Shown in pieces: positions 9,848 through 17,143 of a DNA stretch of 64,000 bases; within the stretch, counting starts at the first letter, position 1; every line of letters starts with the position of its first letter. A program made the position numbers and the translations under genes. The stretch lies in the NCBI GenBank assembly GCA_016860845.1, contig BOKF01000009.1, positions 124,001 through 188,000 of the forward strand. Reading direction: 5' to 3'. This DNA comes from Chloroflexota bacterium (GTDB taxonomy: Bacteria; Chloroflexota; Anaerolineae; 4572-78; J111). The notes under the pieces are model-generated. The model made no database searches, was not told where the DNA came from, and was given only the letters and a program-made list of their open reading frames with translations.

Positions 9848-11047
9848 CTAGCCGGTGACATCCGATTGAACGACGCGAACAGACCGCCGCTGTAAGGCGG
9901 CATAGGCCAAAATACAAGCCAGGCCCAGCAGCGGGGGAAAAACTAACAGTTGCAGGCCGGCGGCTAATGAGGAATTGTCGGCCACAAAGCCGGTAAACGA
10001 TGCGCCCAGGCCGCCCGGCGCCCAGCCCACACCCATAACCAGGGCTGAGGCAAAACCAACCCCGTAAGGCCAGGTTTCCTGAGCCATAATAACGGCGACA
10101 GGAAAGGTCAGGCCGATGAGTACCCCCACCAATCCAACCAGCAAAAGCTGCCAGGGACCGCTGGCGTGCAGAAAAAGCCACAAAGCCGGCCCGATTAAAA
10201 CCATGCTGACCACAAACACCTGCCAGCCTCCAATCCGGTCAGACAGACTGCCGCCGGTCAGGCTGCCGATACCGGTAGCCACAGCAAAAGTAGCCAGCAT
10301 TTGTCCACCCAGTGCCAGCGAGCCGCTCTGGCTCTGAATCCATTCCGGCAAATAAGTCACAAAGCCTACCTGCACCCACGAGCGGCACATGACCGCCACA
10401 ACCAATAAGATCAGGCCCCGCTTAGTTCCGCTATCCATAGCCGACAGCGCAGGACGGTGAGGCGAATGGTGCGGGAGCCGGCTGGACTCAATTTGGCCCT
10501 CTCGGCCCAGTTGCCAGTGCAGCATCAGGCCGACCAGCAGGGCGATAGGAATCAGGATAGTGGTTCCTGGCAGGCCCAGCCAGGCGATGCCAGTCGCCAC
10601 CAGCAGCGGACTCAGGGCCGAGCCGAAGTTACCGCCTACGGCGAAAATAGATTGGGATGTCCCGCGATTCTTGCCGGTGTTGGCTGAAGCCAGGGTGGCC
10701 CCGGCCGGGTGAAATGCCGCCGAGCCAAGAACGCCCAGCCCAACCAGCCCGATTAACGAGAGATAGTTCCAGGTAAAGCCAACCAACCCCAACAGCGTTC
10801 CCATCCAGATTATGCTCAAAACGGTTATCCGCCGCGCTCCCCACTGGTCGCTCAAATGGCCGAAGACGGGCTGCAGCAGCGCCTCGCTCAAACCGGCGAC
10901 GAGGGCGATCACCCCAATCTGGCTGTAGGTCAGGCCCAGGGTGTTGATGAGAATAGGATAAAGCACCGGCAAAAAATTGCCGCACAATTCAATGGTAAAA
11001 TGGGCCAGAGCCACCAGAAACACGGCCCGGGTGAAAAAAGAAGTCAT
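9848..11047 (-). CDS. MFS transporter, fosmidomycin-resistance-like
   Basis: 399 residues with about 12 membrane helices. The loop GHLSDQWGARRI (about 63-75) is the MFS motif A, and GVLGSAAFHPAGATLAS matches the region conserved in Fsr-type exporters. The second half repeats the motif as GGSLSDRIGG. Probably a drug or metabolite exporter in the inner membrane; substrate unknown. It lies downstream of the DsbA-cyclophilin gene but is separated from it by a terminator. Confidence 0.85.
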   Translation of the reverse strand: MTSFFTRAVFLVALAHFTIELCGNFLPVLYPILINTLGLTYSQIGVIALVAGLSEALLQPVFGHLSDQWGARRITVLSIIWMGTLLGLVGFTWNYLSLIGLVGLGVLGSAAFHPAGATLASANTGKNRGTSQSIFAVGGNFGSALSPLLVATGIAWLGLPGTTILIPIALLVGLMLHWQLGREGQIESSRLPHHSPHRPALSAMDSGTKRGLILLVVAVMCRSWVQVGFVTYLPEWIQSQSGSLALGGQMLATFAVATGIGSLTGGSLSDRIGGWQVFVVSMVLIGPALWLFLHASGPWQLLLVGLVGVLIGLTFPVAVIMAQETWPYGVGFASALVMGVGWAPGGLGASFTGFVADNSSLAAGLQLLVFPPLLGLACILAYAALQRRSVRVVQSDVTG

Positions 11048-11071
11048 ATCGAGGGTCCTCTTAAGTATAGA

Positions 11072-11097
11072 AAAACGCCCCGGTTGGGGGGCGTTTT
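11072..11097 (-). terminator. Rho-independent terminator of the DsbA-cyclophilin gene
   Basis: Perfect stem aaaacgcccc / ggggcgtttt (11072-11081 and 11088-11097) with 6-nt loop. Read on the minus strand it ends in a T-run (gtttttc) 29 bp after the TAG stop at 11126. Confidence 0.85.
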
Positions 11098-11125: not shown

Positions 11126-12538
11126 CTAACTCTTTTCCTCAATAGTGATGTCCGTAATTTTGTCGCCAGGAGGAGCATCGGGGGTGGTTTGTGGGTCGCG
11201 CGGGGTAATGGCCTCAACTACGTCCATCCCCTCGATGACGCGGCCAATGATGGTAAAGCCCGAGTTCAATTGCGGAACGGCATCGTAGGTAATGAAAAAC
11301 TGGCTGCCGTTGGTGTTGGGACCGCTGTTAGCCAGCGAGACAACTCCCGGCCCGTCAAACGTACGGGAGGAAGCGATTTCGTCGTTGCAGCGGTAGCCGG
11401 GGAAGCCAATGCCAAGACCGGTCGGGTCGCCGCCCTGGGCCACAAAGCCCGGCAGGACGCGATGGAAGGTGACGCCTTTATACCAGCCGTTTTCGGCCAA
11501 AAAGGCGAAGCTGTTGACATTCACCGGGGCGGTGTCCGTGTAAAGTTCAATAACAATATCACCTTTTCCGGTTTCGATGGTGGCCGTGTACTGTTTTTCG
11601 GGATCAAGGACCTGCTCCGGCTGGCTGTACCAATTCTCACGCAGTTGCATAAGCTTGATAAAAGCATCCAGCCCTTCGTAGGATAGGCCAAAATTTTGGG
11701 CCGGATAATCTACCCCGTTGACGACAAAGCTGGGCGTGCTGGTCAACTGAGATTGGACAGCCGCATCGTAATCCGCCTGAATTTTGTCGGCATAGGTATG
11801 CTTTTCCAGGTCTGACTTGAACTGGTCAATATCCGCTACTCCGGCTTCTTCGGCGTAGCCAACGAGCACCTCTATCATCTCGGCTTCAGGCTTGGAAACC
11901 CACTGGTCCTGGCGCTCAAACAAAAGGTCGTGCATTTCCCAGAATTTATCCTGGGCGCCTGCCGCTTCGGCAGCTTCGGCGGTAATCATAGCTTTATCGT
12001 GAATGGTCAATAAGGGAAAATGACGAAAAACCAGGCGCAGGTCATCGCCGTAATCATCTTTGAGTTTCTCCGCCACGGGAGAAATACCGGCGCAGCCCGG
12101 TCATTGAAAGTCGCCGTATTCAATCAGGGTGACTGGCGCATTGTCCGGGCCTTTCGACCAATCCTGATCGGATACGGGGGCAATCAGGCTGTTACTGGGA
12201 ATTTCGACTGCCTGGCAGATCGCGTCTGAAGTTGCTGCCGGGGCGGATGTGCCGGTGGGAGTAGCCACCTCTGAGGTGGCGGCTGCCTCGGTGGCTGTTG
12301 GCTGTTGTGCTTCAGGTTGGGTTGTGGCCGGGGCGGCGGCTGCTTCTTCGGTTTGAGTAGGCCCGCACGATTCATCGGCGCCACAGCTAGCGTCTCCATT
12401 TGTGGTGACCACTGCCGCTGCTGCTTCGGTTTGGGTGGGAGCGGGCTGGGCCGCGCCGCCGCAGGCAGCCAAAAGCAGCAAACTCAGCAAGAGCAAGCTC
12501 ATCAGCCAGGCTACCTGTGGCTGAAATTGTTTTAGCAT
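11126..12538 (-). CDS. Probable selenoprotein: lipoprotein with DsbA-like thioredoxin domain fused to cyclophilin
   Basis: One frame of 471 codons runs from ATG at 12538 (ribosome site aggaagagga) to TAG at 11126, interrupted only by TGA at 12103-12101 (codon 146). The first half has a lipobox (LLAAC, Cys26), an Ala/Thr/Glu-rich linker and the strand VTLIEYGDFQ. After the TGA come PGC and a continuing DsbA/Thioredoxin_4 domain with LVFRHFPL and the cis-Pro loop TSTPSF (Pro269). A cyclophilin domain follows (about 317-468) with FHRVLPGFVAQGGDPTG (Arg360) and SQFFIT (Gln413). The TGA replaces the first Cys of the CxxC motif, giving U146-P-G-C149, and a SECIS-like hairpin follows. Predicted role: extracytoplasmic thiol oxidoreductase plus prolyl isomerase acting in protein folding. 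A nonsense mutation or sequencing error (TGC to TGA) is the alternative. TGA serves as an ordinary stop in neighbouring genes. Confidence 0.8.
12065..12084 (-). promoter_or_regulatory. Candidate bacterial SECIS element
   Basis: On the minus strand a perfect 7-bp stem (tttctcc / ggagaaa) encloses the loop CGTGGC. The stem starts 17 nt and the loop 24 nt after the in-frame TGA at 12103-12101. Bacterial SECIS elements have a short stem, a small apical loop with a G among its first two bases, and a UGA-to-loop distance of about 16-37 nt, all of which are met. It lies inside the coding sequence, as in all bacterial selenoprotein genes. Confidence 0.7.
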
Positions 12539-12650
12539 GGTCCTCTTCCTTTTTCGTAATGACTAGAATGGAATAACGAGGGATATTTTACCATAAACCT
12601 GGGGAATGTCGAAGTGGAGGGTGGCTCGACCTTTGAACGGAGAGCGGCAG

Positions 12651-13979
12651 TTATTCGTGAACTACTACCAGGGTACCCGGGTTATCGGTGCTGGCAACTA
12701 CCTCGGCCTGGCCAGGGGGAAGAACCGGGTTGGCCCACTCAAATAACTGCTTGGCCTGGCTGGTTTCCAAATTAACGCAGCCGTGACTCATCGGCTGGCC
12801 AAAGTTGCTGTGCCAATAGGTGCCATGTAAAGCGTAACCGGCGTAGAAATACATCGTGTAGGGGACTTCGGGTAAATAATAGTCAGAGCCAACCATCAGG
12901 GTGGAGGTCAGTTTCCAGTAGATGTTGAACTTGCCCAGCACGGTCGGGGTGTTGGGCAGCCCGGTCGAAACGGTGAACGACATCACCGGCACGTCACCCT
13001 CCCAGGCCGTCACCTTCTGGTTGGTCACGTCAACTTCGATCCACTTTTCGCCGGGGTAGGCTGGCTGGTGCGCCAGCAAAGCGCGATCAACCGGCTGTTT
13101 TTCGGGGGGGAACGGCCCAACTGGCCCAATGAGTTGAGACGGGTCAATTGAAACCTGTTTAGTTTCATGGTTGAATGAGTGGGCCAGATCTGCGGAAAGC
13201 GGAACTGTGGTTGAAGGGAGGGATGAGTCAGCTATGGTGGGTGGTTGGTAAATGTGGGGGGGTGGTTCCGGCAGAACAACGGTATCTGTAGCCGAGGTCA
13301 AACTTTTGCTGCCGGTTTTTGGCGTTGTCACGACTACCGGGTCGGCTGCTACGGCTGCTTCAACCTGGGGACTTGCCGTTGGCACGGGAGCAGCGATGGG
13401 CGCACCGGCCAAGGTGGATGAGGGTATGGCCGGCATCCAGGCAGCCAGGGTTTCCGGCGGCACAAACAAGAGCGCGCCCAGGCCAATGGCCATCAGGCCG
13501 AGCGCCCCGGTAATCAAAAAGATACCCAGGAAAGGATTGATGGTACGGCGGGCGCGGTGAGCCAAAGCGCCTTTTTTGGCCTTTTCCTGGACTTCTTCGG
13601 AAAGCAAGAGAGAGCGGATGGAGTCTTCACCGGCATCTTCGCTTGAAGTAGTGGCTGTCTGGTCCGAGGTTGGCGCAGTGTGGTCGGTGGGAGGGTCTGG
13701 CTGTTCCGGCGGCAGTCCCAAGCGCACCCTGGCCCAGCGAATCCCGGCTTTGGCCCGTTCATTGCTCGGGTCGAGGGCCAACACCCGGTTAAGCAGACGA
13801 ATGGTATCTTGCGGGGAGGGCAGGACAAAAGCTAACCAGAGCATCGCGGGAATGTTGTTGGGGTCTTGCCTGAGCACGGCGATGAGGTGACTTCTGGCCT
13901 CGTTTTCTCGGCCAGTACGGGCTGCTTCAATACCCAGGCGCAAATTGTCAGTAATGGTCGCTGGTTGTTGGCTGCTCAT
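12651..13979 (-). CDS. Membrane-anchored L,D-transpeptidase (YkuD) with N-terminal TPR
   Basis: 442 residues. Residues about 8-85 form a TPR-like pair (EAARTGRENEARSHLIAVLR, LNRVLALDPSNERAKAG). A single membrane helix follows at about 147-172, then a Pro/Thr-rich linker, and a YkuD domain at about 310-442. The catalytic signature is HGTYWHSNFGQPMSHGCVN, with Cys401 as nucleophile. The family cross-links peptidoglycan stems (3-3 links) or attaches proteins to the wall. The TPR is predicted on the cytoplasmic side and the catalytic domain outside. Followed leftward by the selenoprotein-like gene's upstream region. Confidence 0.88.
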   Translation of the reverse strand: MSSQQPATITDNLRLGIEAARTGRENEARSHLIAVLRQDPNNIPAMLWLAFVLPSPQDTIRLLNRVLALDPSNERAKAGIRWARVRLGLPPEQPDPPTDHTAPTSDQTATTSSEDAGEDSIRSLLLSEEVQEKAKKGALAHRARRTINPFLGIFLITGALGLMAIGLGALLFVPPETLAAWMPAIPSSTLAGAPIAAPVPTASPQVEAAVAADPVVVTTPKTGSKSLTSATDTVVLPEPPPHIYQPPTIADSSLPSTTVPLSADLAHSFNHETKQVSIDPSQLIGPVGPFPPEKQPVDRALLAHQPAYPGEKWIEVDVTNQKVTAWEGDVPVMSFTVSTGLPNTPTVLGKFNIYWKLTSTLMVGSDYYLPEVPYTMYFYAGYALHGTYWHSNFGQPMSHGCVNLETSQAKQLFEWANPVLPPGQAEVVASTDNPGTLVVVHE

Positions 13980-16339: not shown

Positions 16340-17143
16340 TTATCTCTTGAGGGGAATAAAGCCATGCTCCGGTCCCAGTTGGTCGAACTGGGCCTTGAGC
16401 ATGTCTCGCTCGACGGTTTTGCGGGCGACTTTTCGCTCCATCTCGGCCGCCAGTTCGCCCAGCAAATCCCGGCCCCGGCGGCGGGCCAGTTTGACCTCCA
16501 AGCTCAACTGCACGCTGGGACGGTGGGGAATTTGGCGCAACTCGCGTTCGATCTGGCGCAGCCGGCGCTGGCAGCGCTCCAGTTCAGCTTGCAACGCTTC
16601 GAGCGAAACCTCGAAGGTTGAACGTTCAATCTCCAACGTTTGGGCCAGTGCGATCAGTTCGGCCAGGCTGCGGGCGGCATAAGCGGCATTGATCGCCGCC
16701 ATTTTTTCGGTGCGCCGGGCGCGGTCGAGTTCGTCCGCGGCCAAATCGGGGTGGGAGCGGCGGGCCAGTTGGCGGTACAGACGCCGGATTTCGACCTCGT
16801 CGGTGGGGCTGGGCGGTTGGGGCGGTGGGGTGGGGGCACAATCGGCGGGCCGCTGCCAGGCGCGGCGGTACTGGTAGTCCACCGAGGCATAATCCTGGCC
16901 CTGCTGCTTTCGCCGGATGAGGTGCAGGCGGTCCATATACCGCTCGATTTCCGCTTCGAGCGCCTCCAACCGGTCGTACAAGTAGCCGACGCGGGCTTCA
17001 AAGGCAAATTCAAAAGCATTGACCTCGGCCAGCCGGTCGGCCAGTTCCGCCTCTTTTTCGATCAGCTCACTTTTGGCCTGCTCGACAGCGGCGCGGAGGC
17101 GGTTTAATTTTTCGGATGTAGTTTCTGTTTGTGAACGGGCCAT
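16340..17143 (-). CDS. Coiled-coil protein with internal J-domain
   Basis: 267 residues with two long Glu/Arg/Leu-rich coiled coils (about 8-85 and 170-255). Between them is a J-domain-like segment: EIRRLYRQLARRSHPDLA, then EKMAAINAAYAARS. The HPD motif needed to stimulate DnaK ATPase is present. A Pro-rich spacer precedes it. J-domains are usually N-terminal; here it is flanked by coils. Cytoplasmic, with no signal peptide. Probably a DnaK co-chaperone with an unknown client; no dnaK gene is nearby. Confidence 0.7.
   Translation of the reverse strand: MARSQTETTSEKLNRLRAAVEQAKSELIEKEAELADRLAEVNAFEFAFEARVGYLYDRLEALEAEIERYMDRLHLIRRKQQGQDYASVDYQYRRAWQRPADCAPTPPPQPPSPTDEVEIRRLYRQLARRSHPDLAADELDRARRTEKMAAINAAYAARSLAELIALAQTLEIERSTFEVSLEALQAELERCQRRLRQIERELRQIPHRPSVQLSLEVKLARRRGRDLLGELAAEMERKVARKTVERDMLKAQFDQLGPEHGFIPLKR

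What the first reader, a model, noticed from the sequence alone, without database searches (positions are those of the whole stretch)
11126..12538. Candidate selenoprotein: Sec in the catalytic CxxC of a DsbA-cyclophilin lipoprotein
A single minus-strand frame is broken only by TGA at 12103-12101, exactly at the first catalytic cysteine of a thioredoxin-fold motif (U146-P-G-C149). The flanking sequence on both sides encodes conserved DsbA residues. A perfect stem-loop follows, with its loop 24-29 nt after the TGA and a G at loop position 2, matching the known geometry of bacterial SECIS elements. The combination of extracytoplasmic seleno-thioredoxin and cyclophilin in one lipoprotein is, to my knowledge, not a commonly described selenoprotein type.
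Basis: partly seen in the sequence, partly recalled or inferred. Interest (0 to 1): 0.93.

Follow-up and report, generated by a model that had tools for sequence, protein, structure and literature searches.

The report
Selenocysteine foldase fused to cyclophilin
In an uncultured bacterium of the Chloroflexota, a gene for a predicted membrane-anchored protein-folding enzyme carries a UGA "stop" codon exactly where many of its relatives encode the catalytic cysteine, and comparison with 58 other UGA-bearing copies indicates that the codon is likely read as selenocysteine, which would make it a selenoprotein joined to a prolyl isomerase whose relatives stand in databases mostly as truncated proteins.

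Summary
Minus-strand frame 12538-11126 is open except for one TGA (12103-12101), at the first position of a CxxC motif in a DsbA-type domain followed by a cyclophilin domain. Of 203 TGA-interrupted frames tested in the window it ranks first for coding signal on both sides. In 119 distinct genes, the window's included, this codon is TGA in 59, Cys in 47 and other in 13; Sec and Cys interchange about 15 times on a tree. A hairpin fitting the bacterial SECIS model follows in 54 of 59 TGA genes but 4 of 47 Cys genes. Downstream dN/dS is about 0.08. The window's genome is not held, but all 57 relative genomes with the TGA have SelA, SelB, tRNA-Sec or SelD, and in 49 SelD itself has an in-frame TGA. 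DsbA/DsbG-like UxxC selenoproteins are known, among them NF041057, also found in Chloroflexota. The cyclophilin fusion and its two SECIS layouts appear in none of the paper listings and passages I saw. Verdict: a well-supported new variant of a known kind; activity is inferred.

The parts
12541..12549 (-). putative ribosome-binding site GGAAGAGGA, 2 nt before the ATG
   Evidence: read directly from the sequence
11126..12538 (-). coding sequence of a 470-residue Sec-containing DsbA-cyclophilin lipoprotein, ATG to TAG
   Evidence: relatives
12461..12538 (-). predicted lipoprotein signal peptide ending in lipobox LAAC (Cys26)
   Evidence: sequence, no signal-peptide program was run; Cys26 aligned in 56 of 59 TGA rows and 43 of 47 Cys rows
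12101..12103 (-). in-frame TGA, proposed selenocysteine 146
12092..12103 (-). catalytic motif U-P-G-C (residues 146-149)
   Evidence: Cys149 in 59 of 59 TGA rows
11657..12157 (-). DsbA/BdbD-type thioredoxin-fold domain (residues 128-294)
12065..12084 (-). class A SECIS hairpin: 7-bp stem, loop CGUGGC at 12077-12072
11186..11584 (-). cyclophilin-type prolyl isomerase domain (residues 319-451)
11071..11095 (-). probable intrinsic terminator: stem AACGCCCC/GGGGCGTT then T run
   Evidence: read by eye from the sequence; no tool scan was run

Best explanation
The gene has one in-frame UGA, at the place where 47 of 118 distinct relatives encode the first catalytic cysteine of a DsbA-type domain, and this UGA is likely decoded as selenocysteine by SelB with tRNA-Sec at the hairpin whose loop lies 23 nt downstream, giving a predicted membrane-anchored lipoprotein that would combine a seleno-thiol:disulfide oxidoreductase with a prolyl isomerase. 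Shown by sequence and comparison: the single TGA, its Cys and TGA counterparts, the hairpin that follows TGA and mostly not Cys, purifying selection downstream of the TGA, and both domains. Inferred: incorporation of Sec in this organism, export and lipid anchoring at Cys26, attack of the Sec146 selenolate on a substrate disulfide with Cys149 resolving it, and prolyl isomerisation by the second domain on the same client outside the membrane. Whether it works mainly as oxidase, reductase or isomerase is not decided by the sequence.
For: TGA or Cys at one aligned codon: 59 TGA, 47 Cys, 13 other in 119 distinct genes, the window's included. 15 Sec/Cys changes on a quick tree; 12 are forced by well-supported branches when Sec is set against all other rows. 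bSECIS-model hairpin of at least 6 bp in 54/59 TGA, 4/47 Cys and 1/13 other genes; synonymous shuffles of the 59 TGA genes give mean 3.9, max 10. Folding against synonymous shuffles: mean z -1.69 in TGA, -0.37 in Cys genes; p at most 0.05 in 28/59 and 5/47. On 12 independent tree pairs a class A or B hairpin goes with the TGA in about 9.5, against it in 0.1, no difference in 2.4; median sign-test p 0.004, range 0.001-0.07. Compensatory changes in the stems. The CGTGYT loop word of class A recurs in 15 of 18 TGA places but 1 of 14 Cys places found with the known Sec family model NF041057 (18 and 14 aligned). Downstream dN/dS: 0.0107/0.140 to the nearest relative, 0.199/1.13 to L003. Machinery over cut-off in the 57 TGA genomes: SelA 49, SelB 46, tRNA-Sec 42, SelD 50, at least one in all 57; SelD itself has a TGA in 49. 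UGA is not simply reassigned: 15 of 48 long ORFs in the window and 14 of 59 TGA-bearing family genes end in TGA. AlphaFold model: mean pLDDT 84.3, 339 of 470 residues at 90 or more, matching BdbD and cyclophilins.
Against: The window's own genome is not held, so its sel genes are untested. SelB does not tell TGA from non-TGA genomes: 46/57 against 40/54 over the cut-off. The window's hairpin alone is not unusually stable. Five of 59 TGA genes miss the 6-bp hairpin test, and 4 of 47 Cys genes pass it. No protein-level evidence. The cyclophilin arginine (R360) is kept in only 49 of 59 TGA rows, so isomerase activity may be lost in some relatives.
Confidence: 0.9

Rival explanations
1. The TGA is a true stop and the gene is a pseudogene, or a sequencing error replaces TGC/TGT.
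For: Databases hold most relatives as proteins of about 316 residues: 116 of the 120 listed homologues (of 4485 found) start after position 146.
Against: 59 distinct genes share the TGA at one codon with no other internal stop; dN/dS downstream is about 0.08 to the nearest relative; both sides score as coding.
Confidence: 0.03
2. Two proteins are made: a secreted 145-residue stub and a separate cytoplasmic protein that starts at the GTG at 12076, so no Sec is inserted.
For: A GTG lies 24 nt after the TGA in this frame; 75 of 120 listed database homologues begin at position 155.
Against: The split would cut the thioredoxin fold at its active site. The GTG sits inside the SECIS loop, and the upstream EYGDFQ and the lipobox are conserved in frame. 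Cys versions are single open frames.
Confidence: 0.03
3. UGA is read through by another route (near-cognate tRNA, or general reassignment to Trp or Cys), without Sec.
For: Read-through would also give a full-length protein.
Against: UGA still ends 15 of 48 long ORFs in the window and 14 of 59 TGA-bearing family members. A hairpin fitting the bSECIS model tracks the codon, and sel genes are present in the relatives.
Confidence: 0.04

Closest known systems
NF041057, Rcas_1661 family thioredoxin-like (seleno)lipoprotein, given as the 'DsbG-like' UxxC selenoprotein in PMC13188914
   Same: Lipoprotein found in Chloroflexota, DsbA/DsbG-type domain, UxxC at the active site, TGA and Cys forms, CGUGYU loop after the TGA
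   Different: Model length 247, too short for a cyclophilin domain; this protein scores 108 bits against a cut-off of 190
DsbA-like protein form 1 (PF01323, UxxC), listed in PMC13188914 and PMC9312934
   Same: UxxC in a DsbA-type fold
   Different: No isomerase domain is mentioned in the passages seen; I did not compare sequences with the listed example
Bacillus subtilis BdbD (3eu3)
   Different: Cys instead of Sec (recalled); the matched chain of 186 residues has no cyclophilin domain; 24% identity
Cyclophilin-type prolyl isomerases (PF00160; 2a2n, 1w74)
   Same: C-terminal domain fold and most catalytic-site residues
   Different: Here fused behind a seleno-oxidoreductase

Membership tests
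Bacterial selenoprotein gene | in-frame UGA aligned with Cys in homologues | tested here: met
   59 TGA / 47 Cys / 13 other at one codon in 119 distinct genes
Bacterial selenoprotein gene | bSECIS hairpin: loop 3-9 nt, upper stem 4-16 bp, G in first two loop positions, 16-37 nt after UGA, MFE at most -7.5 (model as given in PMC13188914) | tested here: met
   window: 7 bp, loop CGUGGC, 23 nt spacing; the fold of the region holding both hairpins is -16.4 kcal/mol, and this hairpin's own energy was not computed apart
Bacterial selenoprotein gene | SelA, SelB, tRNA-Sec and SelD in the same genome | tested here: inconclusive
   own genome not held; nearest relative G001 has all four
Bacterial selenoprotein gene | Sec found in the protein | not testable with these tools
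   needs 75Se labelling or mass spectrometry
NF041057 Rcas_1661 (DsbG-like) selenolipoprotein | score over the curated cut-off (190 bits) | tested here: not met
   108.1 bits
NF041057 Rcas_1661 (DsbG-like) selenolipoprotein | lipoprotein with UxxC in a Thioredoxin_4/DsbA-type domain | tested here: met
DsbA/BdbD-type thiol:disulfide oxidoreductases | DsbA-type fold with CxxC (here UxxC) and cis-Pro loop | tested here: met
DsbA/BdbD-type thiol:disulfide oxidoreductases | redox activity | not testable with these tools
   needs purified protein
Cyclophilin | PF00160 domain over cut-off | tested here: met
   134 bits against 21.7
Cyclophilin | catalytic arginine (R360 here; its role recalled from human CypA) | tested here: met
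   present in the window protein; 49/59 TGA and 35/47 Cys rows

The most novel reading that the evidence does not exclude
Anaerolineae carry an unrecognised selenoprotein family: an extracellular, membrane-anchored double foldase in which a selenocysteine disulfide catalyst is fused to a prolyl isomerase. It uses two SECIS layouts that replace one another: a near hairpin with a CGUG loop, shared with a separate Chloroflexota selenoprotein family, and a far hairpin with a GGU loop at the outer edge of the known spacing, often behind a second hairpin. The family has switched between Sec and Cys a dozen times or more.
Probability: 0.75. Interest if true: 0.66.

Novelty: new variant of a known kind. 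Interest (0 to 1): 0.58.

Why it matters
It adds a two-domain architecture to the known selenoproteins and shows that many database entries (116 of the 120 best matches listed) are likely cut off at the start of their active site. The many Sec/Cys switches, with the hairpin coming and going alongside, make the family a natural test bed for how Sec is gained and lost. The two SECIS layouts in one gene family offer a direct test of how far from the UGA SelB can work.

Tried and rejected
Pseudogene or read error: rejected by the shared TGA in 59 distinct genes and by dN/dS. General UGA reassignment: rejected by TGA stops in the same window and in the same family. SelB presence as a test between TGA and Cys genomes: not informative, 46/57 against 40/54. 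Thermodynamic significance of the window's hairpin alone: none. Rfam at gathering thresholds: only three tRNAs in the window. A redox partner next to the gene: of ten flanking genes checked in six relatives' loci, five had no Pfam match and none of the other five matched a redox-partner family; the window's neighbours are an MFS transporter, an L,D-transpeptidase and others. A first scan for other TGA-interrupted frames printed none because its score threshold was too strict, the finding's own frame included; it was repeated without a threshold. A fusion outside the class of G001: in a draw of 400 Chloroflexota genomes at E up to 1e-40, the listed matches of genomes not already in the class sample begin at residue 269 or later, i.e. 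in or just before the cyclophilin part (its list is cut and it keeps only strong matches, so weaker fusions are not excluded).

Full report
WHAT IS THERE. The minus strand of the window holds a reading frame from ATG 12538 to TAG 11126, 470 residues long, with a single internal TGA at 12103-12101. Residues 128-294 match Thioredoxin_4 (81.8 bits) and DSBA, and residues 319-451 match cyclophilin (134 bits). The TGA is residue 146, the first position of the U-P-G-C motif. The N-terminus looks like a signal peptide with a lipobox (LAAC, Cys26; read by eye). A hairpin of seven pairs with loop CGUGGC lies at 12084-12065, its loop 23 nt after the TGA. To ask whether such a frame arises by chance, I scored all 203 frames in the window that a TGA interrupts with at least 30 codons on each side, using codon usage from 23 other ORFs. 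This frame ranks first.

RELATIVES. A search of 5.8 billion proteins found 4485 and lists 120; 116 of these begin after residue 146, mostly at positions 155, 156 and 152: gene callers start after the TGA. At the DNA level one search kept 80 loci. I used 32 of them (L003-L033 and L036; L001 and L002 are represented by L087 and L088). Of the rest, those whose match spans the site all have Cys there (L039-L080); L039, also a fusion with Cys, was left out. From a search of 396 genomes of G001's class (387 with a match; list cut at its end) I added every listed match down to E 4.8e-94 (one was already held as L011) plus four below that (the two with a TGA and two without). The ratio of TGA to Cys is therefore not a population frequency. 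With the window this makes 123 records; 4 duplicates dropped leave 119: 59 TGA, 47 Cys and 13 other at residue 146. In the list every match with an internal stop has exactly one, a TGA. All 59 TGA rows and 45 of 47 Cys rows keep Cys149.

TREE. With the site masked, a quick tree of the 119 (SH-aLRT support only) needs 15 Sec/Cys changes; 12 are forced by well-supported branches when Sec is set against all other rows. Window and G001 pair as Sec, with the Cys-bearing G002 as their sister (support 92). The tree cannot say which way most changes went. Cys genes L008 and L088 keep much of the hairpin stem, which suggests recent loss of Sec there.

SECIS. The published bacterial model asks for a 3-9 nt loop with a G in its first two positions, 16-37 nt after the UGA (passage of PMC13188914). 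A detector written on those lines (loops of 3-7 nt, 16-42 nt away, at most one G-U) finds a stem of at least 6 bp in 54 of 59 TGA genes, 4 of 47 Cys genes and 1 of 13 others. Synonymous-codon shuffles of the 59 TGA genes give 3.9 on average and 10 at most. The limit of 42 was set after seeing the second layout below, so the detector is not fully blind. Folding energy against synonymous shuffles gives mean z -1.69 in TGA and -0.37 in Cys genes (Mann-Whitney p 2.8e-8, relatedness not removed). On 12 independent tree pairs a class A or B hairpin goes with the TGA in about 9.5, against it in 0.1 and does not differ in 2.4 (median p 0.004, range 0.001-0.07). Two layouts appear: class A, as in the window (15 rows; loop CGUGYU, CGUGGC or CGUGGU at nt 24-29 after the UGA), and class B (38 rows; loop mostly GGU, 38 nt after the UGA, at or just past the published limit); 3 rows fit both and 3 neither. 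By the same two structures 5 of 47 Cys rows and none of 13 others fit. Stems show compensatory changes: 5 of 7 pairs in class A and 4 of 6 in class B have a change on both sides. Pairing exceeds all 500 shuffles of the 3' letters, a control that does not remove relatedness. In genes found with the model of the separate known family NF041057, the loop word CGTGYT stands in a hairpin of at least 4 bp in 15 of 18 TGA places and 1 of 14 Cys places. Against this, the window's hairpin alone is unremarkable by energy.

IS THE DOWNSTREAM HALF UNDER SELECTION? Between the window and its nearest relative, dN/dS downstream of the TGA is 0.0107/0.140; against L003 it is 0.199/1.13. A pseudogene would not show this.

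MACHINERY. No whole genome is held for the window. The nearest genome, G001 (92.5% nucleotide identity over 7.6 kb), has SelA, SelB, tRNA-Sec and SelD. In the 57 TGA-bearing genomes, matches over the curated cut-offs are SelA 49, SelB 46, tRNA-Sec 42 (at E up to 1e-9, where 3 of 14 control genomes also ring) and SelD 50. None lacks all four, and 49 of the 57 have a SelD with its own in-frame TGA. Their completeness is not told. SelB is also over the cut-off in 40 of 54 genomes whose gene has Cys or another residue, so the machinery allows Sec there too and does not predict which form a genome has. UGA still works as a stop: it ends 15 of 48 long ORFs in the window and 14 of the 59 TGA-bearing family genes.

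WHAT IS KNOWN. Reviews list DsbA-like and DsbG-like selenoproteins (passages of PMC9312934, PMC13188914 and PMC1794560). PMC13188914 gives the DsbG-like one as NF041057, UxxC, which NCBIfam names the Rcas_1661 thioredoxin-like (seleno)lipoprotein; the window protein scores 108 bits against its cut-off of 190, and that model, of 247 positions, is too short for a cyclophilin part. In a draw of 400 Chloroflexota genomes NF041057 is over the cut-off in 29, often with one TGA. No title or abstract opening in the listings describes a bacterial cyclophilin or prolyl-isomerase selenoprotein (searches listed no paper); word searches found no cyclophilin in PMC13188914 or PMC9312934, the 'isomerase' of each being counted once and, in the passages shown, a thiol-disulfide one, and none of six words in PMC12013277. 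Haft and Tolstoy 2025 (PMC12013261) is not held, so it is unread. The claim of novelty covers these searches only.

VERDICT. Sec insertion is strongly supported by comparison but not shown at the protein level; function is inferred from the domains.

Noticed in passing
L159, L161, L165, L171, L172, L175 (also L140, L149, L155, L163): A clade of ten relatives has Ser, Thr or Glu instead of Sec/Cys at 146 and a Cys four residues before it (EYC/QYC/VYC motif), with Cys149 kept: possibly a shifted redox pair.
   Followed up: no
L235 (G048): Two DsbG-like units lie close together, one with TGA and a far hairpin, the other with Cys.
   Followed up: no
L236 (G002), 535-2401: SelB of the closest Cys-bearing relative is split over several frames, although that genome has SelA, tRNA-Sec and a TGA-containing SelD; decay and assembly error are both possible.
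   Followed up: partly
L008 and L088: Genes with Cys at the site keep most of the class A hairpin (L008 also its loop CGTGCT), like a SECIS relic after loss of Sec.
   Followed up: partly
class B genes, e.g. L125 and L134: A second hairpin of varying register often lies between the UGA and the far GGU hairpin, and might bring the far loop closer to the UGA (read by eye).
   Followed up: partly
window 12651-13979: An L,D-transpeptidase gene on the same strand just upstream, and an MFS transporter just downstream (9848-11047); L001 is collinear with this stretch.
   Followed up: partly
window 16340-17143: A 267-residue ORF with only a sub-threshold DnaJ match (25 bits against 27.8).
   Followed up: no
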